Source of the DNA: Hyphomicrobium sp.
GTDB taxonomy: Bacteria > Pseudomonadota > Alphaproteobacteria > Rhizobiales > Hyphomicrobiaceae
Assembly (NCBI GenBank): GCA_017512425.1
Contig: JAFWGI010000016.1
Coordinates: 1 to 64,000, forward strand
Direction of reading: 5' to 3'
Length of the DNA: 64,000 nucleotides
Numbering within the stretch: position 1 is the stretch's first letter; each line of letters starts with the position of its first letter. Both the position numbers and the translations under genes were made by a program. Under the pieces are notes generated by a model that had not been told where the DNA came from, did no database searches, and saw only the letters and a program-made list of their open reading frames with translations. Shown here in pieces: positions 13,658 through 28,767 of the stretch.

Positions 13658-14851
13658 TCAGTGTTGGGGATAGCCGAGCTTGCCTAAGGGAAGTCCGGGC
13701 GGCGCGAATCGCTTCTTCGACAGGTCGAGCTCGCCCAAGGTCCGCAATTTGTCTTCAAGGCGTTCGTCGATCCACGCCCGCGATCGGTCGGTGAGCACCA
13801 TGCCCGGTTTGCGGTTATAGGCGATCATCGGATCGATATTGCCCCTGCCTGCCGCAGCGTTTCGCTGCGTCGAGGCGAAGCTGTCCGATTTCATCGCCGC
13901 CATCATCGCGCGGAACGACACGCCATCGTCGAGCGTCCCGTCGAGGAACCGAGTATCGTGCACCCGCACATAATTGGCCCAATTTTGCTTCCACGGCCGC
14001 AGGGCGATCTCCGCCCTGCTGGCGACATCGACATCGTCACGATGTTCGCGGCCGATTGCCTTGCCGAAGATCATCAGATCGTCCGGGCTATGGACGAGGC
14101 GCCCGAGATACAGAACGTCGCCGTCCTTGACCTGCCGGGGATGGATTGCGCTGGGATACGTGAACGCCCAATTAGCGCCCGACTCCGCGACGACATCGTC
14201 GGTGCGGAGATCACGGCTCGCCTTGTTGTCACCCGTTCCTGAGAATTTGACAAAGGCCTGATTGGCAAAGGAGGGCGTGGCCGCAGTCGACGTGACGAAC
14301 GGACTGTCGGCGGGAACCTTCGCGCCGAAATCGGGGAGCGATTGCTTGGGCTTTCCCGGATTGGCGACGCGCCGCGCTTCGAGGATTTTCTCCCACTCCT
14401 TGAGCTTCACCGGGGTGAGATCGGCGCCGGCCAGCTTCCATAGCCGCTCGAAATAGTCGCCGCAGGTCGAGACGATCGCGGGATCGCCGGCGGCGAAGCC
14501 GAATTCGTGGTTTCGCCGCATCGCCGCCTCGGTGACGTTGGCGCTCGTCGCGATCACGCTGGCGTTGCCGAACAGATAGAGCTTCGCGTGCAGCCCGCGC
14601 ACGCCGCGCACCTTGCCGCCCGCCGCCAACACCGCGCGCAGTGCCGCGATGTCGCTGACGCCCTGGTCGAAGCAGTTTAGATCGAAGCGCGTGATCAGTT
14701 CGATGTTCTTGGCCGTGCCCTCGCGGACGATCCGTTGTAGCGCCGTCGCCTTAACGAACGGGCAGACGATCCGGAGACCGGAAGGATGGGCGCGTCGCGC
14801 CGCCAGGAGCTCGCGCTCCCACGCCTCGCTGATCAACCGAAAATCCGCCAT
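13658..14851 (-). CDS. Phospholipase D-like domain protein
   Basis: A 397-residue protein from the ATG at 14851 (MADFRLISEAWEREL). The N-terminal 120 residues show a PLD-like core: IVCPFVKATAL, then the motif LHAKLYLF with His88 and Lys90, followed by TSANVTEAAM. The usual Asp of HxKxxxxD is replaced, and only one copy of the motif is seen, so a homodimeric active site or a degenerate enzyme is possible. The C-terminal 250 residues are unassigned. It is the last gene of an apparent operon with a small membrane protein and an XRE regulator. PLD-like nucleases of this type occur in helicase- or restriction-linked defence genes, but no helicase is present. Confidence 0.65.
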   Translation of the reverse strand: MADFRLISEAWERELLAARRAHPSGLRIVCPFVKATALQRIVREGTAKNIELITRFDLNCFDQGVSDIAALRAVLAAGGKVRGVRGLHAKLYLFGNASVIATSANVTEAAMRRNHEFGFAAGDPAIVSTCGDYFERLWKLAGADLTPVKLKEWEKILEARRVANPGKPKQSLPDFGAKVPADSPFVTSTAATPSFANQAFVKFSGTGDNKASRDLRTDDVVAESGANWAFTYPSAIHPRQVKDGDVLYLGRLVHSPDDLMIFGKAIGREHRDDVDVASRAEIALRPWKQNWANYVRVHDTRFLDGTLDDGVSFRAMMAAMKSDSFASTQRNAAAGRGNIDPMIAYNRKPGMVLTDRSRAWIDERLEDKLRTLGELDLSKKRFAPPGLPLGKLGYPQH

Positions 14852-14898
14852 CCGCCCCCTCTTTCCCTCAACCCCCGGCGTCATGCCTGGATATACCA

Positions 14899-15030
14899 TC
14901 AGGATGGTAGCAGGATATAGCCACTGGTGGCCGCGACCACCAAGGCGATCACCACGCGCGCCGCCCATTTGCCGAGTTCCTCGACGAACGCGCCGGTGAA
15001 CCGGTCGATCGGCCTGGGCTCGCTCGCCAT
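14899..15030 (-). CDS. Small single-pass membrane protein
   Basis: A 43-residue product: a short polar N terminus (ASEPRPIDRFTGAFVEELG) followed by one hydrophobic helix (about residues 25-42, AARVVIALVVAATSGYIL) up to the end. Its ATG overlaps the stop of the XRE gene by one base, a strong sign that it is translated. The downstream PLD-like gene begins 48 bases later. The function is unknown; position suggests a membrane-bound component of the same module. Confidence 0.55.
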   Translation of the reverse strand: MASEPRPIDRFTGAFVEELGKWAARVVIALVVAATSGYILLPS

Positions 15031-15776
15031 CAGTCGTCCTCGGCGAAATAGTCGGCAAGCATCTGCTGCTCGTCGACCCGAGCGTCTGCCCACAAGATCG
15101 GGATCGTCCCTGCGGCGGGATTTGAGCGGCGCGAGCGCACCGCGAGGAGCGCTATCGCGATCGGCTCACCGCCGTGGGTCGGTTCAGCGTCATAGGTGCC
15201 GGTGAGGATCGCCGCCGCGTGCGTGCGCTCGATCCGCTCGACACAGGCGAGGAGGTCGCGCCACAGCGGCCTGACTCGGAAGTCGCGCTCGGGCTTGCGC
15301 CCGATCAGCCCGAGGCGTTCGGCCTGGACGAAGGACGCGAGATCGAGCCATTCGCGCAATTCTGCGAGGTCGTCAGCGGCATCCGGCCCGAGATCGGATT
15401 GAAAAAGCAGGCTGTGGGTGGCGAGCATCGCCTTGAGCTGTAGTTCGCTCCGAAATGGTGCCACCGGTACCGGTACGCGGCCCTCGGTCCAAGCGAACAT
15501 CTCCACGAAATTGGCGGCGGCCTCTTCGGCCGTGGGGCGCATACGCGGACGAAGGAATTCATCCTCGGGCTGGCGCAGCGCGACGGCGATTTTGCGGAGC
15601 TGCGCTGGGCGCACCCGGATGCCGCGCTCGACGCGCTGCACCGTCGCGAGCGAGACACGGGCTTCGCATGCCAGCGTTTGCTGCTTCCAGCGGAAGAACA
15701 TCCGCTGCAATTTCACGAAATTGGCGATGGCGGCGCCGTCGAGGACAAAAGTCGCTGAGGGATCGATCGTAGTCAT
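15030..15776 (-). CDS. XRE-type helix-turn-helix protein with unknown C-terminal domain
   Basis: A 248-residue protein starting at the ATG at 15776. Residues about 28-75 form a Cro/C1-type helix-turn-helix (LACEARVSLATVQRVERGIRVRPAQLRKIAVALR), placed after a short N-terminal helix. The remaining 170 residues are acidic and helical with no family I recognise. It leads the operon with the small membrane protein and the PLD-like gene, so it may be both regulator and sensor, as in several phage-defence modules. The upstream ORF extension to 16085 is the shadow of the divergent PIN-like gene. Confidence 0.7.
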   Translation of the reverse strand: MTTIDPSATFVLDGAAIANFVKLQRMFFRWKQQTLACEARVSLATVQRVERGIRVRPAQLRKIAVALRQPEDEFLRPRMRPTAEEAAANFVEMFAWTEGRVPVPVAPFRSELQLKAMLATHSLLFQSDLGPDAADDLAELREWLDLASFVQAERLGLIGRKPERDFRVRPLWRDLLACVERIERTHAAAILTGTYDAEPTHGGEPIAIALLAVRSRRSNPAAGTIPILWADARVDEQQMLADYFAEDD

Positions 15777-15908: not shown

Positions 15909-16760
15909 GTGGCGGTGAAGCGTCACGTCATTGATACCAACTATCTCGGCTATGATGACTTGGCCGCGTTTCTTGGCCGCTCGACCGACAATTACGCGGT
16001 GATCGCGGAGATGACATTGGTCGAGGTGCACAAGAAAGCGGCGGCGTTCCAGGCGCGCCAGCTCCTCAAAATCCTGTGTCGGCACCCGCGCCAGGTCATC
16101 ATCCTACGCAGCACGCTCGATCTCTATCGCGATCGAGGTGACAGCAAAGGGCTGGTCAACCGCCTCATCGAGCCGAAACAGACCGGGTCATTCGGCGAAT
16201 ATTGCCGCACCGTGATTGACGTTCCCGACGACGAGCACGTCGATGCGCACTTCGCGCTGATGGAGGAGCAGTCGCGCGCGCAGGTCGCCGACCTGCAAGC
16301 GTCGGTCGGCAACATCCTCAACCTATTCGAGCGCTGCGTGACGATCTTCGAGCGTGGTGAGCTCGACAGGTTGCGCAAGCGGATTCCTTATTCGGAAGCG
16401 TTGCAGCGCAAGCTCATCCACCTCAGCATGGACATCCACAAAGTGTTGCTGCGATCGCTCAACATCGAGCAGCGCTTCTACCCCAAGACGACGCCATGCA
16501 CGCTTAACACGTTTGTGTTCCGCTACGCACTTTGCGTCGTGATCTTCCTGACACGCTGGATCCGTCACGGCGAGGCCAAAGAGATTCGGCAAGAGCGGCT
16601 CGTCAACCACGTGATGGATTTGAAGACGGCGGCGGTCGCGACCTTCTTCGACGGACTCAAGACGCATGACGAAATGCCCAAGGACGTCCATCTCGAGGCG
16701 AAATATGTGCTATCGGCGATCGGTGCCTATACCAATTGCGGCAAAGGCGGATGGCGATGA
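15909..16760 (+). CDS. PIN-like nuclease-type protein of unknown function
   Basis: A 283-residue protein. The N terminus reads KRHVIDTNYLGYDDLAAFL, the first strand and Asp-containing motif of PIN-like domains, followed by VIAEMTLVEVHK with the expected second acidic residue. The C-terminal two thirds are helical and unassigned. The GTG at 15909 has an AAGG site 8 bases upstream and gives the standard PIN opening; an ATG at 15861 is possible but has no ribosome site. The gene overlaps the next one by 10 bases, so the two are probably one transcription unit. PIN-domain proteins are usually RNases; the target here is unknown. Confidence 0.55.
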   Translation: MAVKRHVIDTNYLGYDDLAAFLGRSTDNYAVIAEMTLVEVHKKAAAFQARQLLKILCRHPRQVIILRSTLDLYRDRGDSKGLVNRLIEPKQTGSFGEYCRTVIDVPDDEHVDAHFALMEEQSRAQVADLQASVGNILNLFERCVTIFERGELDRLRKRIPYSEALQRKLIHLSMDIHKVLLRSLNIEQRFYPKTTPCTLNTFVFRYALCVVIFLTRWIRHGEAKEIRQERLVNHVMDLKTAAVATFFDGLKTHDEMPKDVHLEAKYVLSAIGAYTNCGKGGWR

Positions 16761-18172
16761 CGCCCAGACGCACCATGCAGCGGACGATCGAGATTGCTGA
16801 CTTTGAACTGCCGCGCGGGGCGGTGTCGATCCAGCAGCTGATGGCGATGCCGCGGTCGGTATGGGATCATCTGCGCAGCGAGATAACCCGCCGCCGTCAG
16901 ACCGATCCCGCGCATCCAATCGCGCGGTGCCGCTTGTGCAAGGGGCCGATCTTCATTCGCGCGCATTTCGCCGACGGCGAACATGCACCGGTCTTCGCAC
17001 ACTATCCCGAGAGTCCGACCGACTGTCCCTGGTATCAGGGCGTCAACCTGAAGCCCGACGACGCGCGCGCCGCGCAATATCAGGGTCATCAGGAATCGGC
17101 GCTGCATCGCTGGCTGTGCGAGACGATTGCCGAAGTGCTCGGCAAAGACCCGCGCTGCCAGCTCGTCACCGTAGAAACCTACCGGCGCCCCGCAATCGCG
17201 GCCCGGGGACGTTTTCCCGATGTCTATGCCGAGTTGGACGGGCTCGGAAAATTCGCGATCGAAGTACAGCTCTCCAAACCCTTCGCGCCCGAGATCATCG
17301 CGCGTCACCTTCATTATGAAGCCGAGGGCGTGGCGCTGCTGTGGGTGTTCCGCGAACTTCCTCCAGAACTGCCGCAAGGCTTTCACGATGTCATCACGCT
17401 CCAGCGCGGCAACGTCTTCCTGTTCGACGACGCGGCGCTCGCAGCATCGATCGCGCAGGGCAAGCTCGTGCTGACCGCCCTTCTCGAGACCGATCGCGGC
17501 GGATTTCTCAAACCACGGCAGGCATCGCTCGACGACCTCGATCGCAGCACCGGGCGCGCTGTCTTCATCGAGGATCGTCGCTCGGACCGACTGCTCGAAT
17601 ATTGCCGCCTCGGCCGGGAAAAATGGTGGGAGGCATTTCGCGAAGCGCCGCCGTCGGACTTCGACTTTCCGTTCAGCGAACCCTGCTTTCATCGCGCCTG
17701 GGATTCGATCAAGGGTTTCGTGCCAGCGCTCAGCCCGTGGAAGCGCGAATGCTGGTCGACGCAATTCATGCGGGGTGATCAGCATTTTGCGGAACTGGCG
17801 GCGATCCTCTTCTCGATCGCCCGAACCGCCGCGACGGCCAAGGATCGCGTCTACGTCACGCGCTATACCGGCGAGGGCGCCTTGGTCGCGATGCTCAATG
17901 CCAAGCTCTCATCACAGTTTTTCGCACCCTATGCGTCATTGATCGAGACCATGCTTCGGGCCGGACCTGCGCGCGATCGTCTCGATCGCGCGTCATTGAA
18001 GACAGCGTTCGCCAAAGCCGCGGCGATGGCCGAGCAGGTCAAGTCCGGCCATCCCGTCTGGGCGGGGGCCGCGCGACTGTTTCCGGAGGTCTTCGACGGG
18101 CTGCGGCGCGCGGAGCTCGACGATCTCGGCAGGCTGCCCGGATGGGCGGGCGGAGCGGAGCAGCCGACTTAG
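16751..18172 (+). CDS. CoiA-like / DUF6035-type protein with zinc-finger and nuclease-like segments
   Basis: A 473-residue protein. Near residue 60 there is a CRLCKGPIF motif followed by His and Cys residues (HFAHYP-like segment, then DCPWY), resembling the zinc ribbon of competence-protein-CoiA-like proteins. Residues about 150-185 read GRFPDVYAELDG and then KFAIEVQLS: an Asp plus E-x-Q spacing fitting a PD-(D/E)XK-type nuclease core of the CoiA family. The C-terminal half is helical and unassigned. The start ATG lies inside the end of the PIN-like gene; its stop overlaps the convergent gene at 18169 by 4 bases. A role in handling foreign DNA is inferred. Confidence 0.6.
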   Translation: MAMTPRRTMQRTIEIADFELPRGAVSIQQLMAMPRSVWDHLRSEITRRRQTDPAHPIARCRLCKGPIFIRAHFADGEHAPVFAHYPESPTDCPWYQGVNLKPDDARAAQYQGHQESALHRWLCETIAEVLGKDPRCQLVTVETYRRPAIAARGRFPDVYAELDGLGKFAIEVQLSKPFAPEIIARHLHYEAEGVALLWVFRELPPELPQGFHDVITLQRGNVFLFDDAALAASIAQGKLVLTALLETDRGGFLKPRQASLDDLDRSTGRAVFIEDRRSDRLLEYCRLGREKWWEAFREAPPSDFDFPFSEPCFHRAWDSIKGFVPALSPWKRECWSTQFMRGDQHFAELAAILFSIARTAATAKDRVYVTRYTGEGALVAMLNAKLSSQFFAPYASLIETMLRAGPARDRLDRASLKTAFAKAAAMAEQVKSGHPVWAGAARLFPEVFDGLRRAELDDLGRLPGWAGGAEQPT

Positions 18173-19152
18173 GCCCTTTCTGCGGGACGCAGGAACGGCG
18201 GCACTTCTGCTGGCTGCTGATGGAGGATCAGCGTCACGACGTCCTGTTCAAGCGCGCGATCGAGCGCAGCCGTGAAATTGGTGATGCTTGATACCACCTT
18301 GTCTCGGCGGATTGCGTGCCGCCAGTTGATTTGTTCTCCCGGTTGCTGCCGCCAGGCGATGAGCTGGACTAGCGCCATATGGCCGAACATCATCCCCTCT
18401 TCGCCGGCCTGGAAGGCGATGTGGATATGCGTCGGAGTGAAGGTCTGCCGCTCTTCCAGATCCCAAGTCGTGAACAAGGTGGCGACGTCTTCGTGGATAT
18501 CGTCACGCGGCTGCCCGCCGCTGGCGGTAAACCGGACGCGGTCAATCCGCATGCGCCATTGCTCGGTCGTGGTATCCCCGCTGGTTTCGGTTTCGAGCAA
18601 TTCTTCCTTGAGGCACTCCAAGACGATCCCGGCACCTGGCGCGATCTTGTAGGACACGTCGCCGGCAAGCACACCGAGCAGGTTCTGCCGCATCGCCTGG
18701 TCGAAACGGATATTGAAGTTTTTCCTCGCCTTTCGGAGATGCCGCACCTCGAACAGCATCCAGACGCTGTAAAATTTCCAGGCGATGAGCAGTGGCTTGC
18801 CGAGCAGGTCGGCATAGGCGTTCAATCGGCCGAGATATTCTGGGGTGAACGAGAGCGTCTGGCTCCGCTTCACCTTTACCTCGATCAGGACTGGCCCTGA
18901 TGACTGAAAGTCGGCGAGCAGGTCGGGAACCTGATAGGTCTCTCGAGACGCGGGTGGCGACTGGTGCTGGTCGAGCTTGTGGATCAACCGGGTCTGGCCG
19001 AGCCAGGCGCAGACCGCCATGAATTCGTCCTCAGCAGGCAGGCCGCGGTCGAGCTGGCGGACCTTGTCCGCAATCCGACGCGCATCGCTCGCCCAGCCAA
19101 GCTCGGCGAGCACGTCCTGAATCAGGCGGTCGGTATCGTCGGGTTCGGCCAA
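18169..19152 (-). CDS. PD-(D/E)XK-type protein of unknown function
   Basis: A 327-residue soluble protein. Residues 75-95 hold a PD-(D/E)XK pattern, VPD (Asp77), then 13 residues, then IEVKVK with Glu91 and Lys93, as in restriction-endonuclease-like folds. Flanking helix and strand predictions fit: a long helix before and GKPLLIAWKFYSVWMLF after. The C-terminal half (from about 180) is unassigned and Thr/Gln rich. It is convergent with the CoiA-like gene. A nuclease role is inferred from the motif; no methyltransferase partner is present. Confidence 0.6.
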   Translation of the reverse strand: MAEPDDTDRLIQDVLAELGWASDARRIADKVRQLDRGLPAEDEFMAVCAWLGQTRLIHKLDQHQSPPASRETYQVPDLLADFQSSGPVLIEVKVKRSQTLSFTPEYLGRLNAYADLLGKPLLIAWKFYSVWMLFEVRHLRKARKNFNIRFDQAMRQNLLGVLAGDVSYKIAPGAGIVLECLKEELLETETSGDTTTEQWRMRIDRVRFTASGGQPRDDIHEDVATLFTTWDLEERQTFTPTHIHIAFQAGEEGMMFGHMALVQLIAWRQQPGEQINWRHAIRRDKVVSSITNFTAALDRALEQDVVTLILHQQPAEVPPFLRPAERA

Positions 19153-19344: not shown

Positions 19345-20175
19345 ATGCGCGCAAACTATAAGTCGAAGACACTGGGTCCACGCGCCGCGCAGCTCGTCGT
19401 CGAACTGAACGAGCGGCGCAAGACCATCTTTTCGCTCGAGGACGTCACAGAGATCACCGGCCTGAGCCTTCCGTCGGCCCGCAGCCTCGTCGCTAACACC
19501 GAAGCGCGCGGGATCGTTACACGCCTCAAGCCCGGGCTCTATAACCTCGTTCCGTTCGAGCGCGGCCGTGACACTGAGCATGTCAGCGACCCTTATCTGA
19601 TCGCGAAAAGCCTGGTCGGCGACACGCCCTACTTCATCTCGCATGCCAGTGCGCTTGAACTGCATCGCATGGTCACGCAGCCCCAGCTTGCGATTACGGC
19701 ATCAGTCGCCAAGCGATTGCGCCCCCAGCGACTGCACGGCTATGAATTCCAATTCATCCACGTCAAGCAAGCCAACTTCTTCGGGCTCATGGATCATTGG
19801 ATCACGCACGAGGAGCAGGTCAGGGTCAGTGATCCCGAGCGAACCATCATCGACGGTCTGAACCATCCGCAATATGTCGGGGGCATCACCGAAGTCGCCA
19901 AAGGGCTTTGGATGAAGCGCGACACGCTGCATATCCCCCGCCTTGTCGAGTATGCGGTGCGGATTGATGTCGGCGCCGTCATTCGCCGCCTCGGCTACCT
20001 GCTCGAATTCTACGGCCTCGCCGAGTCCCCAGCGCTGGAGCCGCTGCGCGCCAAGCTGACCTCGACCTATCAACGCCTCGATCCGCTGTTCCCAGCCGAA
20101 GGCAGGATGCTCGCGCGCTGGCGCATCCGCATCAACCTCGAACCCGATGAACTAGACGCGATCCGGAGCAGCTGA
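19345..20175 (+). CDS. abiEi: AbiEi-family antitoxin / transcriptional regulator
   Basis: A 276-residue protein with an N-terminal winged helix (about residues 25-75, IFSLEDVTEITGLSLPSARSLV, then GIVTRLKPGLYNLVP) and the AbiEi C-terminal domain (PYFISHASALELHRM, then VSDPERTIIDGLNHP). AbiEi proteins neutralise the AbiEii nucleotidyltransferase toxin and repress their own promoter. Its stop overlaps the ATG of abiEii by one base. Together they form a type IV toxin-antitoxin or abortive-infection module. Confidence 0.9.
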   Translation: MRANYKSKTLGPRAAQLVVELNERRKTIFSLEDVTEITGLSLPSARSLVANTEARGIVTRLKPGLYNLVPFERGRDTEHVSDPYLIAKSLVGDTPYFISHASALELHRMVTQPQLAITASVAKRLRPQRLHGYEFQFIHVKQANFFGLMDHWITHEEQVRVSDPERTIIDGLNHPQYVGGITEVAKGLWMKRDTLHIPRLVEYAVRIDVGAVIRRLGYLLEFYGLAESPALEPLRAKLTSTYQRLDPLFPAEGRMLARWRIRINLEPDELDAIRSS

Positions 20176-21008
20176 TGATACCGCAACGCGACATTTCCCG
20201 CATCGCGAACGCACTGTTTCAAGCCGGGGGCGGGCGCCGCATCCCCGAAGCTGTCATCGAGCGCGACTATTGCCTGGCGTGGTTTCTAACTGCGCTGGCC
20301 CGGCATCCGTTGCGTGAGCGGCTCGCGTTCAAGGGCGGCACGGCGTTGCGGCGCTGCTGGTTCGAAAACTATCGATTCTCGGAGGATCTGGATTTCTCGT
20401 TGATCGAGCCGACCGAGCTCGATGCCATCCTCGCCGGGTTCGCCGAGATCTTCGCCGACATGCAGGCCGCCTCGGGCATCGTCATGGCCTACGACCGGCC
20501 CGATCGGCACGGCCATCAAAACACCCACACCTTATATCTCAATTACAAAGGACCGCTGCCGGCGGCGAGCGACGTCAAGGTCGATATCACGATCAACGAG
20601 GTGTTCTGCTTCGGTCTCGTCGACCGGCCGATCCTGCGCACCTTTGACGAATTTGCCGATCTGCCCGAGGGGCCGACGGTGCGCACATACAGCCTCGAGG
20701 AGATTTTCGTCGAAAAGCTCGCGGCGCTGTCGGACAAGGCCCGCACCGAACCCCGCGATCTCTACGACTTGTGGAACCTCGTCGACGAACACGACATCCG
20801 GCCGGGCGAACTGCTCAGCGAACTCACGGCGAAGCTGGAACTGCGCGGCCGCAAGCCCGAGGGGCTGGCTGATGCGATCGCGGCGAAGGAGGCCCGTCTC
20901 GCACGGTTGTGGAAGGATCGACTGTCGCAACAGATGAGCGATCTGCCCGAATACGAGGGAGTCTTCCGGCAAGTGATGCGGGCGCTTCGCGAGGCGGCGC
21001 TACCCTAG
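20175..21008 (+). CDS. abiEii: AbiEii-family nucleotidyltransferase toxin
   Basis: A 277-residue protein. The nucleotidyltransferase core is clear: FKGGTALRR at 52-60 (motif with Gly-Gly-Thr), then FSEDLDFSL with Asp71 and Asp73 as metal-binding residues, and the later signature SLEEIFVEKLAALSDKA followed by PRDLYDLW. AbiEii-like enzymes block growth, in characterised relatives by adding nucleotides to tRNA acceptor ends. The gene is coupled to abiEi, and all motifs are intact, so the system should be functional. Confidence 0.92.
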   Translation: MIPQRDISRIANALFQAGGGRRIPEAVIERDYCLAWFLTALARHPLRERLAFKGGTALRRCWFENYRFSEDLDFSLIEPTELDAILAGFAEIFADMQAASGIVMAYDRPDRHGHQNTHTLYLNYKGPLPAASDVKVDITINEVFCFGLVDRPILRTFDEFADLPEGPTVRTYSLEEIFVEKLAALSDKARTEPRDLYDLWNLVDEHDIRPGELLSELTAKLELRGRKPEGLADAIAAKEARLARLWKDRLSQQMSDLPEYEGVFRQVMRALREAALP

Positions 21009-21098: not shown

Positions 21099-22433
21099 TT
21101 GATCGAACTGAGCCAGCAGCGGTTTGAAGCCTTGGCCGGTTACACCCGCCTGCCGCAGATCGTTTTGCTGATCCAGGAGGCCGCATGGTTCTCGACGGAG
21201 GACGAACGGCTGCTCGGGCTGATAACCTGGGATAGATATGACCGCGACTTCGGCTGGATCGTGTTGGGGCGGGATCAGCGACTTTGCTACCGCGCGATCG
21301 ATCAGGATGTGTCGCTTCCGACGTTCGTGGCCGCCAGGGAGCGCCTGAGCGAAGCCATCGATCGCCACGCGGCGCTTCCCGACGAAGCCTATCATCAGGG
21401 TGACGAACACGGCGCCCCGGTCGATTTCTTTGCGCCGCGCGTGCCTGTTGACCGCCTGAACCCGACCTTTCGCATTCTGACCGAAGAAGCCCGCTATTCA
21501 CCGGCTCGCGAGCTGATCGCAGCGATGATGAGGTTTCACGAGGATGCCGACGGCAACTTCGTACAGCAATTCCAGACCACGGCGTTCGATCCACGGATTT
21601 GGGAGCTCTATTTGTTCGCCGCTTTCACCGAGCTGGGCTACGCGGGTCAAGCCGATGTCGCCGTACCGGACTTCGTGCTGGCAGGACCGCGCGGCGAACT
21701 GGCGGTCGAGGCGACCACGGTCAATCCGCCCCAGCGCGGTACGGTTCCGCAACCGAAGACCGAGCGCGAGATCCGCGCGTTCGTCGACAATTATGTCCAG
21801 ATAAAACTCGCGCGGGTGCTGACCCGTAAACTCAACCACCAGCCACCTTATTGGGCGTTGCCGGGGGTCGCCGATATTCCGTTCGTGCTCGCCCTCCAGG
21901 ATTTCCACGCGCCCGGCGCAATGAGCCGGATCGTGATGCCGGCGACCGAATATATCTTCGGGGTCCGGCATTCGATCGTTGACGGGCAACGCCGGATCGA
22001 GCGGCTCGACGAGCATGTCTATGGCCGAAATCGCGAGCTTTCCCACTTCTTCGGTTTGCCGGGCTCGGAAAACGTCAGTGCGGTCATGCTCAATCCGTTG
22101 GGCACGATCACCAAGTTCAACCGGATGGGATATATCGCCGGGTTCGGCGATCGGCGCGTCAAGATGGTGCGTTCCGGCCTTCGGCGTGGTGAGCTCGACG
22201 ACGATGGTCCCGCACCGAAAGAGTTCCGCCAGGAAGTGTACGCGCCTGACTATCGGGAAACGTGGATCGAGGGTGCTGTCATTCTCCACAATCCCAATGC
22301 GCGAGTGCCGCTCGACCCGGATCTCATTCCCGATGTGAACCACGAATTTCTGCAACCTGACGGCAGCATCATGTCGTTGCTCCCGCCGTTCCAGCCCTAT
22401 ATCTCGCATACCAGTGTGACGCTCGGCGACTGA
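21099..22433 (+). CDS. Hypothetical protein with restriction-endonuclease-like segment
   Basis: A 444-residue soluble protein starting at a TTG preceded by AGGAAAGG. I do not recognise the family. Residues 164-206 show a helix with Glu169 (IWELYLFAAFTELG), then PDF (Asp191), then ELAVEATT with Glu204, which is the order helix-Asp-strand-Glu of a PD-(D/E)XK fold; the usual Lys position is Thr206, so activity is uncertain. The long C-terminal part is unassigned. It lies between the abiE operon and the Avs-like gene, with which it is convergent (33-base gap). Confidence 0.5.
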   Translation: MIELSQQRFEALAGYTRLPQIVLLIQEAAWFSTEDERLLGLITWDRYDRDFGWIVLGRDQRLCYRAIDQDVSLPTFVAARERLSEAIDRHAALPDEAYHQGDEHGAPVDFFAPRVPVDRLNPTFRILTEEARYSPARELIAAMMRFHEDADGNFVQQFQTTAFDPRIWELYLFAAFTELGYAGQADVAVPDFVLAGPRGELAVEATTVNPPQRGTVPQPKTEREIRAFVDNYVQIKLARVLTRKLNHQPPYWALPGVADIPFVLALQDFHAPGAMSRIVMPATEYIFGVRHSIVDGQRRIERLDEHVYGRNRELSHFFGLPGSENVSAVMLNPLGTITKFNRMGYIAGFGDRRVKMVRSGLRRGELDDDGPAPKEFRQEVYAPDYRETWIEGAVILHNPNARVPLDPDLIPDVNHEFLQPDGSIMSLLPPFQPYISHTSVTLGD

Positions 22434-22466: not shown

Positions 22467-25400
22467 CTAGACGCTGCTGGCTGCCAGCTCTTCCATATGC
22501 GTGCGGATCATTGCTGGGATGCTCGTCGAAGCGGCGGGGGCGCCGGCCAGCAACAACCGCGCGGCCGCGGCCAATGTTCGGTCCGGTTGCGCGAGAATCG
22601 CTTCGATCGGCGGCGCGTTGATGGCTGGCATCGCCAAGCGGAACCGCGAATCCTGCACCAATGTCGTCCAGCCGTCGAAGAGCCATGTAATGAACGGGTC
22701 GGCGACTCCGTCGCGCAGCTTTGAGATACGGGCATGGAGGAGCAGCCAAATCGCTGCCCAGCAGAATTCGGCAGGCCGCGCGGTGAGATCCTGGCGGAGC
22801 GCGTTGACCGCAATGGCAGCTCCCTCGCGATCGGTGGTCAATCCGGTGGCGCGGCCGGCCATACGTTCGAGGAGCGGATGTAAGGCGACGAGCTCGGGCG
22901 CCGCCAAGCCGGCTGCGATCACGGTGTCGACAGCGGCAAAGTCGCCGGCGATCGCGGTTGCGATCGCAAAGCTCAGCAGATAATCCTCCGCCCCGCGCAG
23001 AATCTCCGCGCTGGCATCACCGTCAATCACCGCGAGCGGAATCATGCCGCGCGCGGGATTCTTGAGGTCTTCGCCTAAATCGCGGCCGCCGCCTGATCCC
23101 ACGATCTCGGACATCGTCGCGTGACGCCTGATCCGCGATACGAAATCGTCGGTGTCGTGCGCACCGATCGCGTTGCGGTCCTGCGCGATGGCGAGCGTAA
23201 TCTCCGACGACAGGATCGGCCCGTCGGTCAGATAGTCTCGAAACTCGCGATAGAAGCCGGTCGGCTCGGCGAGCGCCTCATCGGCTTCGGCGAGAAAGTA
23301 GAAGGCAAGGTCGAGCGCGATCACGGGATGCGACCGGATCGCCTCCAGCGGGTCCGGATTGCTCGCGCATCCAGGGGAATACGGAACCTCCTGGTCCGCA
23401 CCGGACAGGCGGCCGGTCAGCTCCTTGAACACCCATAGCATCGCGTGGCGCACGACCCGGTGGCAATGGGCTTCGTGCAGCGTCCCCTCGGGATCGAGGC
23501 TCGGCAAGCTGACCAGCGCGTCACGCAGCTTCACGATCGCGACATCCGGATGTCCGGCGCGGCATGCTGCATGCGCGGTGTCGGCGAGCAGCCCAACCGC
23601 CATCGCCCGCACCGCGGGCAGCGTAAGGGTCGACGCGATCGTCTGGGCGCGGTCGAACCAGTTCAGGGCCGCCGCCCAATCGCCGAGCTCTGCGGCGCTG
23701 ATGCCGGCTTCGCGGGCGATATAGGCGCGCTCGATCGGATCTTGGCCGCCCTGTTCCGCCGCGGCGGTCAGCAGGGGCAGAGCCTCGGCATGATCGCGCC
23801 GGCGCCAATGTATCTTGGCGCGCGCCCGGACGAGAGCTATGTCGAATCCGAACCGCGTCTCGGCATCGGACAGGCAGGCGAGCGCCCGCTCGGCGTCGTT
23901 GCCGTTTTCGTCGAGGCAGACCGCCTGGGCGATCGCACAGCGCGCGGCCAGACCCGGGTTTGGCCAACCTATAGCGATGTCCGCGCAAGCGGCGTAGTCG
24001 CTGGCGGCAGCTTCCCAATCGAATCCTTCTGTCTTCGATTCCTTGAGCCAGCCATGATTGACGAGGATCAAGAGGTCGCCGCGACCTGGCTGAAAAGACG
24101 AGAGGAACCGATCGCGCAGCGCGGGCTCCTCACGGTCGAGCCGTTCGATAAGGCTCCGAAATCCCGCGACCGTGCGGATATTGCGCATCTGGCCGGCGAG
24201 CAGGACGCCGCTGACATGGGGGTTGCCGACCGCCTTCGATTGAAAATTACCGCCGGCCGTGGCGAGACGCGGGTCAGTTGCAGTAAGCTTGTCGAAGCGC
24301 AGGAGCAGTTCGATCCAGTCGGGGAACAATTCTCCGGCGCGCGGATGCAGCAGCAGTTTCGAGAGGGCCAGACCTTCGAACAGGATTTCGCCCTTAACGT
24401 CGCCGCGCTCCCGCTCGAGGGCAGCCCAACATTGCTGCGCCGCCGACACCGAACCGTAGGGCAACAGCGCGAGAAGCTGGGCAAGCCGCAGCATCGCCGA
24501 CGCCGCGAGATCCTGAGGGAAAATCGGAACATCGCTCGGAAACGATTGCAACTCGCCGACGAACGGGGCGATGATGTCGAGCATTTCGGAGTTGCAGGTG
24601 ACCACACTGTGAGCGAAGGCGGCCACGAGCGTACCGTCCTCGCTGCAAAGCGCATGGTGCAACACCATTCCGGCATCGAACACCGAGAGATCGCCGCTGC
24701 GCATCTTCGTGTCGGCGATGCAGTGATGGATCGCCCGGCACTCGTCGATGCTGAAGACATCCTGCGCCGCGCCTTCGAGCAGCGGCGATACGCGCAGCCT
24801 GTCGCGGCGCATCGGCTCAATCCACGGCCCGACAAGGCGGTCGAGTACAAGACCGGCAAGCGACACCGGTGGCGATAGGCTGCCGAGTGCCATCGCCAGT
24901 CCGCGGTTGAAACTACCCTCGATCATGCTGGCGCGAAACAGCAGCAGCTGTGCTTCGGCGGGCATCGCCGCGACGAGCCGTTGGCGTACGGCACGTCGCT
25001 CTGCGCCAAGCTCGGTGTGCAGCTCGCCACCAAGCACCGCCGCCAGCGACGCGCGCGACCAATTCGCCGCCGAAAGATGCAGGAGGGCCGCCATGGTCAA
25101 CTGCGGATGTCCGCGAGACGTGGCGCGATAGACGGGACCGGCAAATTTGGCGTCGCCCCCTGTGAACGCGACGAGGTCGGCCACTTCCTCCTCGCTCAGA
25201 TACGGAATTTCGACCACTGGCGTCGCAGCGGGCGACAATTGGTGCAGCGTAGCGGCGGTCGGCGCGCGGTAACTCGTTATGATCGCCGTTGCATCGCGAC
25301 GTCGCAGACCGGCCATCACGCGAAGCAGCAGATCGCGGATCGCGGGATCGTCGATCTCGTTCAGATCGTCGAGAATGATGCTCGTCGCCGACGATGCCGC

Positions 25401-26468
25401 CAATTCACCGAGCAGGAGTTGCAACCGCGCGGATGTATCTGCCGGGCTGAGATTGCGGAAATCGACGATTGCCCATTGGCTATCGGTTGGCGCAGCGACG
25501 AGGCGCGCGAGGAGCGATTTACCCAGACCCGTCGCACCGGTCGCAAAGACAAGTCCAGCAGCGCGCCGGGTCTCATCGAGCGCCATCACCAGCGGCGCAC
25601 GCGGCGCGAGGATCGTGGGCAGCGGCAGCTCGGCGGAGGGGACCAACAGCGACGGACGCGAGAACGCACCGGTCCCCGCCGGCCCCTGGAATGCCGTCGC
25701 TAGCTGATCGACGGGCACAGCCACCATCGCCGTCTCGTCGATCAAGGCGAGCAAATCGGCCCGGCGCAATTGGCGGGGACCATCGGATACTGCGGTCATG
25801 AGCAGCCGCTCGACGACCGCCGGTAACACCGCCTTACCAACCTGGCTCGACAGTCGACGGGTCGACGCGACAAATTCGATCAGGCCCGCACCGAGGTCGG
25901 CACGGACGTCATCCAGGCCAGGGGCACCGCACGACCAATGGATGCGGGCGAGGAACTCGCGACGCAGCGCCGCGTCGGACAGCGAGGCAATATATGTCTT
26001 GGTCGCAGGTTTCAGATTGAGGTCTTCGAGCACCGTGCGCAACGGCGCGATATCGGCGCCAGCCGCCGCTTGGCGCCAATATCGCAGCGCGGATTCGCCG
26101 GCGATGCGTTGGTCCTTGCGACGCTCGAGGCCGATTGCCGCCGTCGTCAGATAATGGAGCGAAACAATGCGTCCGGGATTACGTGCGACGAGATCGACAT
26201 AGGCATCGATCGCTGTGTACACATCAGCGGACTGGAGCGTAATGCTACCGCTAGTGGCCTTTACCTGCGTGCCAATTAGCGCTTCGCGGCTCGCGATGGC
26301 ATAGTCTTCCGCGACTTCCAGGTAGAGTAGCTCGCCGTCGGCCAAACCCAGCCAGGCAAGACCCGAAGTGTAGAGTTGATATCCGTAGCCGCGCAGAGAA
26401 GCGACCGCTTGGCGGGCTTTATCCCCCTGAGGCGCGTCGAGGCGCGGGCCAGATCCAAAGACATTCAT
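22467..26468 (-). CDS. Avs-like antiviral sensor: Cap4-type nuclease, STAND NTPase, helical repeats
   Basis: A 1,333-residue protein with three parts. Residues about 20-115 resemble the Cap4/DUF4297-type nuclease: GYGYQLYTSGLAWL, then YLEVAEDYAIA with acidic residues 51, 54 and 55, and GTQVKATSG with Gln68 and Lys70, the ExD...QxK pattern. Residues 300-470 are a STAND-type P-loop domain: Walker A GATGLGKS at 311-318, Walker B SIILDDLNEI near 363-372, and the GHPQLT motif near 453 seen in STAND proteins. From about 480 to the end are helical TPR-like repeats, the likely ligand-sensing part. This order matches Avs2-type proteins, which recognise conserved phage proteins and then degrade DNA. 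No partner gene is needed in that family. Whether it belongs to a known Avs clade needs alignment. Confidence 0.75.
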   Translation of the reverse strand: MNVFGSGPRLDAPQGDKARQAVASLRGYGYQLYTSGLAWLGLADGELLYLEVAEDYAIASREALIGTQVKATSGSITLQSADVYTAIDAYVDLVARNPGRIVSLHYLTTAAIGLERRKDQRIAGESALRYWRQAAAGADIAPLRTVLEDLNLKPATKTYIASLSDAALRREFLARIHWSCGAPGLDDVRADLGAGLIEFVASTRRLSSQVGKAVLPAVVERLLMTAVSDGPRQLRRADLLALIDETAMVAVPVDQLATAFQGPAGTGAFSRPSLLVPSAELPLPTILAPRAPLVMALDETRRAAGLVFATGATGLGKSLLARLVAAPTDSQWAIVDFRNLSPADTSARLQLLLGELAASSATSIILDDLNEIDDPAIRDLLLRVMAGLRRRDATAIITSYRAPTAATLHQLSPAATPVVEIPYLSEEEVADLVAFTGGDAKFAGPVYRATSRGHPQLTMAALLHLSAANWSRASLAAVLGGELHTELGAERRAVRQRLVAAMPAEAQLLLFRASMIEGSFNRGLAMALGSLSPPVSLAGLVLDRLVGPWIEPMRRDRLRVSPLLEGAAQDVFSIDECRAIHHCIADTKMRSGDLSVFDAGMVLHHALCSEDGTLVAAFAHSVVTCNSEMLDIIAPFVGELQSFPSDVPIFPQDLAASAMLRLAQLLALLPYGSVSAAQQCWAALERERGDVKGEILFEGLALSKLLLHPRAGELFPDWIELLLRFDKLTATDPRLATAGGNFQSKAVGNPHVSGVLLAGQMRNIRTVAGFRSLIERLDREEPALRDRFLSSFQPGRGDLLILVNHGWLKESKTEGFDWEAAASDYAACADIAIGWPNPGLAARCAIAQAVCLDENGNDAERALACLSDAETRFGFDIALVRARAKIHWRRRDHAEALPLLTAAAEQGGQDPIERAYIAREAGISAAELGDWAAALNWFDRAQTIASTLTLPAVRAMAVGLLADTAHAACRAGHPDVAIVKLRDALVSLPSLDPEGTLHEAHCHRVVRHAMLWVFKELTGRLSGADQEVPYSPGCASNPDPLEAIRSHPVIALDLAFYFLAEADEALAEPTGFYREFRDYLTDGPILSSEITLAIAQDRNAIGAHDTDDFVSRIRRHATMSEIVGSGGGRDLGEDLKNPARGMIPLAVIDGDASAEILRGAEDYLLSFAIATAIAGDFAAVDTVIAAGLAAPELVALHPLLERMAGRATGLTTDREGAAIAVNALRQDLTARPAEFCWAAIWLLLHARISKLRDGVADPFITWLFDGWTTLVQDSRFRLAMPAINAPPIEAILAQPDRTLAAAARLLLAGAPAASTSIPAMIRTHMEELAASSV

Positions 26469-26676: not shown

Positions 26677-28738
26677 ATGTCGTCTAACAATAACAATTCG
26701 CTAGGCATCGCAGCGCGATGCGAATCTACGCCTAGGGCTCCCCGCCAAGGAATCGCTTCATTCCTCCGTCAAAACTGGCTAGCTCGGGCTGACGGGAGGC
26801 GGCGTTTGCATCAAGGTGCTTTATTCACAACAGATTGGCTGACGGAAGGGATCACGGCGACGCCGCAGTGGCTGGCGCTGGATGATGCCCGAATTACGCA
26901 ATTGTGGGCGCAATCACGCCATTTGCTCGACGAACTTCTGAAGCGCAAAAATCCCACCGAGGCCGATACCGAGCAGAAGTTGATTTACCCGTTACTTGGG
27001 CTGCTGGGCTGGGATCATATTTCGGTTCAGCAAAATCTTACCGTCCGCGGGCGCAAAGATGTGCCGGATGCGCTGCTGTTTCCCGATGCAGATGCCGATG
27101 CCACCGCTAGTGGGCTGGAGCCGTGGCAGCGGTTCCGCCATGGCTCGGCGCTAGTGGAGGCCAAGCGCTGGGGGCGACCGCTCGATCGGCAAGGCACGGG
27201 CGATCAAGGTGTCCCGTCCACCCAAATCATGCACTACCTGCAGCGTGCCAGCGTGGTTACCGAAGGCCGGATGCCATGGGGCATTTTGACCAACGGGCGA
27301 AATTGGCGGCTGTATTATCAAAACGCGCTTTCGGTTGCCGAAGATTTTTTCGAGATCGACCTTGGCAAGCTGTTCGGTTTGCCTGGTTGCACACCCGAAC
27401 TTTTTGACGTCGGCATGTCCCCCGAACACGCCTTTCGCCTGTTCGTTCTAGCGTTCGGGCGTGAGGCGTTCCTGCCGACCGAGCAAGGCCGCAGCTTCCA
27501 TCTAATCGCGCTTGATGAAACGAAACGCTGGGAAGAGCGTGTCCGAAAGGATCTCGCCGAAACCGTCTTCTCGAACGTGTTTCCCAAGTTGATCGCAGCG
27601 ATCCCCTTGGCCGACCCCAATCGGCCTGCCGAGATCAATGCGACCTATGCAGAGGAAGTACGCTCCTCCGCGCTGTTCCTTCTCTACCGGCTGTTGTTCA
27701 TTCTCTATGCCGAAGACCGCAATCTTCTGCCCGATGAGACTGGCCCCTATTCGCCTTATTGTCTCACCCGGCTGCGGCAGGAAATCGAGCAACTGGATAA
27801 TGAGGGTCGCAAGCCCCTGGAGCGGAGCCACGCCTACTGGTCGCGGCTCGAAACGATCTTCGGGGCTATTGCCGAGGGCGACGACAGCCTTGGCATCCCG
27901 CCCTATAATGGTGGCCTATTCGATGCAGCGGAATCTCCGCTGCTCTCGCGTATCCGCTTGCCCGACACCGTGTTGGCTGAAGTCATATTGGCACTGTCGC
28001 ACCGCCGCGAGGACGGGAGACTGCGTTACATCAACTATCGCGATCTTTCGGTGCAGCAGCTGGGCTCAATCTATGAATCCATCCTCGAATATGGCGTGGA
28101 GCCAGATCTTGAGGCCCGCAGCGTCAAGCCGCGAGCCGACAATCAGGCCCGCCATCGTTCCGGGCCGTATTACACACCCGAGCCACTGGTTTCGCTGATT
28201 ATTGACGACTATCTCGACGTCGAAGATGCCGTACAGAAACTTCAACCCGAACTCGTGCTTGGCACTCAGATGGAGCGCCATATCGCCAAACGGCTTGGAA
28301 TTCCATGTGCCGTGATCTCAGCGCCCGTGCACGTTCAGGATTTTCCCGCGCGTTACTCGCCACAAATGGGCTTTGAAGGCGCCAACGTGCTCTTCGACAC
28401 CTGGGTCCATCCTCTGATGATGGGTCTCGAAGAACATTTGCTCGCGATGTTCCGCAACGACTTCGAATTCCACGACGCGGCAGCGCCCTCGCATCTCGGC
28501 AAAAGTTCTGCGCCGAAGGCTGGCCCGGCACAAACCGACGTATCGCAACCCAACGCGCCGCAGCCCGAAACTGGGGCCTCTGAGCGTGGACAACCGGCGC
28601 CGGCAATCGCGCAATGGACCGCGGACGCTGAGAAAGAGCTGGGCAAAATTCCATTCTTTGTGCGGGGGAAAGCCCGCCGGAATACCGAACGATATGCTTC
28701 CGAACACGGCCTGACGAGCATTTCAATCGAGACATTAT

Positions 28739-28767
<29 letters not shown>
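26677..28767 (+). CDS. Chimeric open frame: type IIG restriction-methylation N terminus joined to BchB C terminus
   Basis: A 696-residue open frame made of two unrelated pieces. Residues 1 to about 507 belong to a type IIG/Eco57I-like restriction-methylation or PglX-like protein: PD-(D/E)XK pattern with Asp131, Glu161 and Lys163 (VPDALLF ... LVEAKRWG), helical region, then [16 protein letters not shown] and [14 protein letters not shown], the opening of the methyltransferase domain. There it stops: SAM-binding and NPPY motifs are absent. From about residue 510 ([11 protein letters not shown]) to the end it is the C-terminal 187 residues of BchB, the light-independent protochlorophyllide reductase B subunit. 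The join lies at about 28,195-28,215. Neither enzyme can work from this product: one lacks its methyltransferase, the other its N-terminal two thirds. Confidence 0.85.
28201..28767 (+). pseudogene. bchB: 3' remnant of bchB (light-independent protochlorophyllide reductase subunit B)
   Basis: The 187 codons before the stop at 28765-28767 match the end of Bch[20 protein letters not shown], then [39 protein letters not shown], a variable Pro/Ala linker, and [18 protein letters not shown]. BchB with BchN forms the catalytic component of dark-operative protochlorophyllide reductase, fed by BchL. The first two thirds, with the Fe-S cluster Cys, are missing. Placement directly before bchH, overlapping it by 29 bases, is the normal bchB-bchH arrangement, so the loss is at the 5' side only. 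Confidence 0.9.

What the first reader, a model, noticed from the sequence alone, without database searches (positions are those of the whole stretch)
22467..26468. Avs2-like antiviral sensor with Cap4-type nuclease
The 1,333-residue protein joins an N-terminal DUF4297/Cap4-like nuclease (acidic residues 51-55, Gln68, Lys70) to a STAND NTPase (Walker A 311-318, GHP motif) and about 850 residues of helical repeats. This matches the AVAST logic, in which the repeats bind a conserved phage protein and trigger DNA cleavage. The repeat part determines specificity and has no obvious close match to terminase or portal sensors I can name, so a new sensing specificity is possible.
Basis: partly seen in the sequence, partly recalled or inferred. 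Interest (0 to 1): 0.72.

Follow-up and report, generated by a model that had tools for sequence, protein, structure and literature searches.

The report
Unclassified bacterial NLR-like suicide nuclease receptor
This gene encodes a bacterial counterpart of plant and animal NLR/Apaf-1 immune receptors (a DNA-cutting domain, an ATP-driven switch and a protein-sensing superhelix) that sits in a cluster of anti-virus genes on a mobile element and belongs to a family that no curated defence database models yet.

Summary
In detail: window 22467-26468 holds an intact 1,333-residue gene, on the minus strand. Residues 19-250 are a DUF4297/Cap4-type nuclease with the E51...D55...Q68-x-K70 motif. Residues 286-571 are a STAND ATPase switch, and about 760 helical-repeat residues with a TPR core follow. 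Sixteen aligned full-length relatives (28-69% identity, mostly alpha- and betaproteobacterial; others on plasmids) keep the same layout and motifs, under purifying selection, with no conserved partner gene.

The gene lies between a PD-T7-1 defence gene and a truncated IIG/DrmMI restriction gene, on an integrase- and Trb-conjugation-bearing element inserted in bchB. Relatives lie beside Gabija, Lamassu and other defence genes.

It is not Avs2. None of 17 family members matches an Avs model, while the same models recognise divergent Avs2 and Avs3. The switch is closest to AP-ATPases (Apaf-1, CED-4, NB-ARC; MalT ties on fold alone). The Cap4-type effector is described for Avs3, not Avs2.

Best reading: a single-gene, NLR-like abortive-infection receptor that oligomerises on sensing an invader and degrades DNA. 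The architecture is well supported, the defence role likely, the trigger unknown. New variant of a known kind.

The parts
22467..26468 (-). complete gene, 1,333 aa nuclease-NOD-TPR protein (P0001)
25719..26414 (-). residues 19-250: DUF4297/Cap4-type PD-(D/E)xK-like nuclease domain
   Evidence: PADLOC LmuA 3e-9; hmmsearch to solved DUF4297 8xav 6e-6; fold Z 17.5 HerA-DUF4297, 15.4 LmuA, 13.4 Cap4
26259..26318 (-). residues 51-70: active-site stretch E51, D55, Q68-x-K70
   Evidence: E51 and D55 invariant in 17, Q68 in 16, K70 in 13 (R in 4); aligned to E, D, Q, K of solved DUF4297
24756..25613 (-). residues 286-571: STAND NOD (NBD-helical-winged helix), AP-ATPase/NB-ARC-like
   Evidence: fold Z 20.4 Apaf-1, 20.2 STAND-TPR 6mfv, 19.7 NRC1, 19.0 MalT, CED-4/NRC4 18-19; hhalign to NB-ARC proteins 96%
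25515..25538 (-). residues 311-318: Walker A GATGLGKS
25365..25379 (-). residues 364-368: Walker B (IILDD)
   Evidence: D368 in 16 of 17, D/E at 367
25104..25112 (-). residues 453-455: GHP, the GxP motif of STAND NODs
   Evidence: G and P invariant, H in 16 of 17
24783..24794 (-). residues 559-562: R-V-S-P, at the position of the MHD motif of NB-ARC winged helices
   Evidence: S561 and P562 invariant; aligned with R-M-H-P of NB-ARC proteins in hhalign
23979..24755 (-). residues 572-830: helical arm between NOD and TPR core
   Evidence: model, all helical; less conserved, 27% mean pairwise identity
23379..23978 (-). residues 831-1030: TPR superhelix core
   Evidence: Pfam TPR 882-945, weak; TPR-protein fold matches (LGN, Rap, consensus TPR) over model residues 379-799; 39% mean pairwise identity, the best-conserved part of the sensor
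22470..23378 (-). residues 1031-1333: variable helical C-terminal part
   Evidence: model helical; 27% mean pairwise identity; barely tested by the fold search
21099..22433 (+). convergent neighbour: PD-T7-1 defence gene (context, not shown to be part of the system)
   Evidence: PADLOC PD-T7-1 E 5e-163
26677..28767 (+). divergent neighbour: N-terminal part of a type IIG/DrmMI restriction enzyme running in frame into the BchB C terminus (context)
19345..21008 (+). AbiEi/AbiEii pair in the same island (context)

Best explanation
A single-gene, NLR-like intracellular immune receptor of a family not covered by curated defence models. In the resting state the AP-ATPase-type NOD is expected to be closed and ADP-bound. 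When the C-terminal TPR/helical sensor binds an invader-derived protein (or an invader-induced host change), the NOD exchanges ADP for ATP, opens and oligomerises, bringing the N-terminal DUF4297/Cap4 nuclease domains together. The activated nuclease cuts DNA indiscriminately, so the infected cell dies or stalls before phage or plasmid spreads. Shown here: gene, domain order, catalytic and nucleotide-binding motifs, fold models, conservation, purifying selection, defence-island and mobile-element context. Inferred from relatives (Avs1-4, HerA-DUF4297, bNACHT25): autoinhibition, oligomerisation, DNA degradation, abortive outcome. Unknown: the trigger.
For: Nuclease homology by sequence and fold; HerA-DUF4297 is a proven dsDNA nuclease acting by abortive infection (PMC11291478). 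NOD fold and motifs of Apaf-1/CED-4/NB-ARC. TPR sensor. Sixteen aligned full-length homologues with the same architecture and no conserved partner gene. Immediate neighbours are PD-T7-1 and a truncated IIG/DrmMI gene, with AbiE and a DrmC-like PLD protein in the same island. Homologue neighbourhoods include GajA/GajB, LmuB, PD-Lambda-4, PDC and SoFic model matches; an Agrobacterium plasmid copy lies next to an AAA ATPase plus ATP-dependent helicase pair and an integrase. Patchy horizontal spread: 69% identity to a Magnetospirillum protein but about 30% to the copy in a same-genus genome.
Against: No experiment. K70 is Arg in 4 of 17 members, so some nucleases may be weakened. Two Bradyrhizobium copies are frameshifted near Walker A. 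The fold was predicted in two overlapping pieces with shallow alignments (pTM 0.53 and 0.58), so inter-domain geometry is unknown. Defence-island context is correlative, and the neighbour tally had no matched control.
Confidence: 0.8

Rival explanations
1. It is a divergent AVAST receptor (Avs2 or Avs3 lineage) that recognises the phage terminase or portal like the known ones.
For: Same order nuclease-STAND-repeats; Avs3 (8dgc) is the top Foldseek hit of the N-terminal half, E 2.4e-9, and aligns over both domains (Z 15.2, 380 residues, but 18 A rmsd).
Against: None of 17 members hits PADLOC Avs models and P0001 hits none in NCBIfam; positive controls hit them strongly. hhalign to Avs2: NOD only, 65%; to Avs3: no credible match (only two sequences). 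The NOD aligns better with AP-ATPases (96%), while the Avs3 NODs register as NACHT in Pfam. Length 1,333 against a model of 2,083 positions for Avs3a.
Confidence: 0.12
2. It defends the mobile element against competing plasmids or conjugative elements rather than phages (same mechanism, different trigger).
For: It sits on a Trb-conjugation, integrase-bearing element and relatives are on plasmids; none found in phage or viral records.
Against: The neighbouring systems (PD-T7-1, AbiE, relatives' Gabija and Lamassu) are mainly known as anti-phage systems; carriage on a mobile element is common for anti-phage genes too.
Confidence: 0.25
3. A MalT-like STAND regulator or housekeeping ATPase, not a defence gene.
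For: The NOD fold is as close to MalT (Z 19.0) as to NB-ARC proteins (19.7), a tie.
Against: The effector end is a conserved nuclease and no DNA-binding HTH was found; rare and patchily distributed; defence-island context.
Confidence: 0.04

Closest known systems
Avs3 (AVAST type 3; 8dgc)
   Same: Cap4-type nuclease at the N terminus, STAND NTPase, helical-repeat sensor, single effector protein
   Different: No Avs model match; NOD closer to AP-ATPase than NACHT; much shorter sensor; no sequence similarity of sensors found
Avs2 (AVAST type 2)
   Same: Similar length and tripartite order; P-loop STAND core weakly alignable
   Different: No match to Avs2 models; nuclease domain not alignable to Avs2; sensor unrelated by profile comparison
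HerA-DUF4297 nuclease / LmuA (Lamassu) / Cap4 (CBASS)
   Same: Same nuclease fold and active-site motif
   Different: Those are controlled by HerA, an SMC complex or cyclic nucleotides; here the nuclease is fused to its own STAND switch and sensor
bNACHT25/bNACHT32
   Same: PD-(D/E)xK nuclease fused to a STAND switch in one bacterial NLR-related protein
   Different: Those have NACHT modules; this family has an AP-ATPase-like NOD and TPR sensor
Apaf-1, CED-4 and plant NB-ARC NLRs; bacterial AP-ATPase-TPR proteins (e.g. 6mfv)
   Same: NOD fold (NBD-helical-winged helix) with GxP motif and an MHD-position motif, repeat sensor
   Different: Nuclease effector instead of CARD, TIR or coiled coil; MHD position reads S-P, with invariant Ser561

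Membership tests
Avs2 (AVAST type 2) | match to curated Avs2 models | tested here: not met
   P0001 none in NCBIfam at E<=1; none of 17 members in PADLOC at E<=0.01; own genome no match to NF041813; positive control: divergent Avs2 hit at 1e-100 and better
Avs2 (AVAST type 2) | homologous sensor region | tested here: not met
   hhalign finds only the NOD, 65% (Avs2 side has four sequences)
Avs2/Avs3 | activation by phage terminase large subunit | not testable with these tools
   no co-folding or assay available
Avs3 (AVAST type 3) | Cap4-type N-terminal nuclease fold | tested here: met
   Foldseek top hit 8dgc, VIA rows; Avs3 described as carrying Cap4 (PMC11291478); sequence profiles do not align (Avs3 side has two sequences)
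Avs3 (AVAST type 3) | match to curated Avs3 model and length near 2,080 aa | tested here: not met
   positive control; 1,333 aa
DUF4297/Cap4 nuclease superfamily | fold and E...D...QxK motif | tested here: met
STAND NTPases, AP-ATPase/NB-ARC side | Walker A/B, GxP, NBD-helical-winged-helix fold | tested here: met
   Pfam NB-ARC itself not hit, so the family is divergent
STAND NTPases | nucleotide-dependent oligomerisation | not testable with these tools
   needs purified protein
bNACHT | NACHT module | tested here: inconclusive
   Pfam NACHT not hit at E<=1, but that model is weak even on Avs2
MalT-type activators | C-terminal LuxR-type HTH effector | tested here: not met
   no HTH in Pfam scan; nuclease at the N terminus
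Lamassu | LmuA next to an SMC-like LmuB | tested here: not met
   neighbours are PD-T7-1 and IIG/DrmMI; no conserved partner in homologue loci

The most novel reading that the evidence does not exclude
A distinct, undescribed type of bacterial NLR: an Apaf-1/NB-ARC-like switch that fires a Cap4-type DNA-degrading domain, with a TPR sensor for an invader signal different from the terminase, portal and other known triggers.
Probability: 0.5. Interest if true: 0.6.

Novelty: new variant of a known kind. Interest (0 to 1): 0.45.

Why it matters
The bacterial immune receptors with nuclease effectors that I could find described use Avs-type or NACHT switches. A family that couples a Cap4-type nuclease to the switch type of Apaf-1, CED-4 and plant NLRs would give a tractable one-gene model for how such switches trigger DNA destruction, and a sensor with no known ligand. 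Public records mostly call these proteins 'hypothetical protein' or 'AAA family ATPase', so defence finders are likely to miss them.

Tried and rejected
Avs2 membership: curated models and profile comparison. Conserved partner gene: none found. Phage or viral carriers: none by tblastn in phage records nor by conserved-peptide patterns in viral contigs. Class-wide profile search gave 44 hits but nearly all are short P-loop matches; apart from the window's own genome only one genome has a long match. Pfam gives only weak AAA and TPR hits. PDB sequence search with the whole family or the NOD returns generic AAA+ proteins such as p97/Cdc48, uninformative. Avs3 is absent from the 50 rows listed for the NOD-sensor model, which proves nothing. 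Literature searches for a Cap4-STAND family gave no description of this one; the library is open-access only.

Full report
What is there. The finding's coordinates hold one intact ORF on the minus strand (22467-26468, 1,333 aa). Relatives that align over the full length occur at 69% (Magnetospirillum sulfuroxidans), 63% (Bradyrhizobium sp. 141, frameshifted), 61% (Pseudogemmobacter), about 54% (Agrobacterium plasmids) and 28-36% in other alpha- and betaproteobacteria, Gemmatimonadota and Bryobacterales. dN/dS against the two nearest is about 0.10 and 0.16, with synonymous sites near saturation. So it is a gene under selection, not a chance frame.

Domains. Nuclease: residues 19-194 match the PADLOC LmuA model at 3e-9, and 8 of 17 family members match an LmuA model and 9 of 17 a DUF4297 model at E<=0.01. 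A profile of the domain finds the DUF4297 protein of the solved HerA complex at 6e-6 with E, D, Q and K of the motif aligned. The predicted fold (pLDDT 84.7) aligns with HerA-DUF4297 (Z 17.5, 3.4 A, 194 residues), LmuA (15.4), Cap4 (13.4) and HamA (13.3). NOD: residues 286-571 have Walker A, Walker B, the GxP motif and an invariant S-P at the MHD position, and align with Apaf-1 (Z 20.4), a TPR-STAND protein 6mfv (20.2), NRC1 NB-ARC (19.7) and MalT (19.0), and with NRC4 and CED-4 in a second model. These Z values are near ties, so fold alone does not separate NB-ARC from MalT; profile comparison with bacterial NB-ARC proteins gives 96% probability. No MalT profile was compared. Sensor: residues 572-1333 are all helical (pLDDT 87), with a TPR core around 831-1030 that is better conserved (39%) than the flanking arm and C terminus (27% each). 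The fold of the last 300 residues was hardly tested.

Context. The gene has no conserved partner in its homologues, so it acts as a single-gene unit. It is convergent with a PD-T7-1 gene (5e-163) 33 bases away and divergent from a type IIG/DrmMI restriction gene; AbiEi/AbiEii and a DrmC-like PLD protein lie further on. Among 131 neighbouring ORFs of the homologues, strong matches to GajA, GajB, LmuB, PD-Lambda-4, PDC candidates and SoFic occur (no matched control was run). One Agrobacterium plasmid copy lies beside an AAA ATPase plus ATP-dependent helicase pair and an integrase.

The mobile element. The left part of the window carries TrbI, CagX, TrbL, TrbC, VirB4-like and VirB11-like conjugation genes. 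The 696-aa ORF at 26677-28767 runs from a IIG/DrmMI N terminus into the C terminus of BchB. The N-terminal part of bchB lies on another contig next to bchN, followed directly by a tyrosine integrase gene, and both junctions share the 9-base word CGCTGATTA. This fits an integrative conjugative element inserted in bchB, carrying the receptor as cargo. A contig break lies between the two ends, so continuity is inferred.

What it is not. NCBIfam contains an Avs2 model (NF041813) and an Avs3a model (NF041816), and PADLOC several Avs models; divergent Avs2 and Avs3 proteins match the PADLOC models strongly, yet P0001 and its relatives match none. Profile-profile comparison with Avs2 aligns only the P-loop region at 65%, and with two Avs3 sequences nothing credible. 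The Cap4 effector is described for Avs3 (PMC11291478). Avs3 is nevertheless the top Foldseek hit of the nuclease-NOD half, so it works like an Avs protein in outline without being a member by the tests run.

Mechanism. From relatives: Avs1-4 nucleases cut host and phage DNA after sensing phage proteins (PMC12931631), HerA-DUF4297 degrades DNA in an abortive response (PMC11291478), and bNACHT25 needs its nuclease and the host chaperone DnaJ (PMC12169576). By analogy, sensor engagement should open the AP-ATPase switch, drive oligomerisation and activate the nuclease. These steps are inferred, not shown. The trigger may be a phage protein, a plasmid product or an indirect host signal.

Caveats. 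K70 is Arg in 4 of 17 members; two copies are frameshifted near Walker A. The structure was modelled in two pieces from 16-17 sequences. Sampling suggests rarity: full-length copies in 3 of about 149 other related genomes and one long match among about 384 other genomes in a class-wide sample.

Noticed in passing
window 28193-28201 and the start of contig C1 of the same genome (L042): An integrase- and Trb-conjugation-bearing element appears inserted in bchB inside the photosynthesis gene cluster; both junctions share CGCTGATTA.
   Followed up: partly
whole genome G000: No light-dependent protochlorophyllide reductase above the family cut-off (best 44 bits against 331), so the bchB insertion may abolish bacteriochlorophyll synthesis in this strain.
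   Followed up: partly
window 26677-28767: In-frame fusion ORF: type IIG/DrmMI N-terminal part joined to the BchB C terminus; the match to the restriction-enzyme models stops well short of their ends.
   Followed up: partly
L013:7953-14375, L014:7977-9128, L020-L022: The same nuclease module (33-57% identity) occurs with other partners: a 2,140-aa protein with no recognised NTPase domain, and 1,250-1,317-aa proteins with a different P-loop region and C terminus, suggesting effector swapping.
   Followed up: partly
L004:7995-11985 and L011:7884-12025: Two Bradyrhizobium copies are frameshifted at nearly the same place around Walker A; pseudogenes, sequencing errors or something else.
   Followed up: no
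window 16736-18172 and 18169-19152: Two island genes with weak CoiA-like and Hjc-like nuclease matches and no PADLOC hit; possible further defence candidates. A homologue of the first lies beside the swapped nuclease protein in L021.
   Followed up: no
window 13658-15058: DrmC-like phospholipase-D-family protein (1e-99) without an evident complete DISARM set nearby.
   Followed up: no
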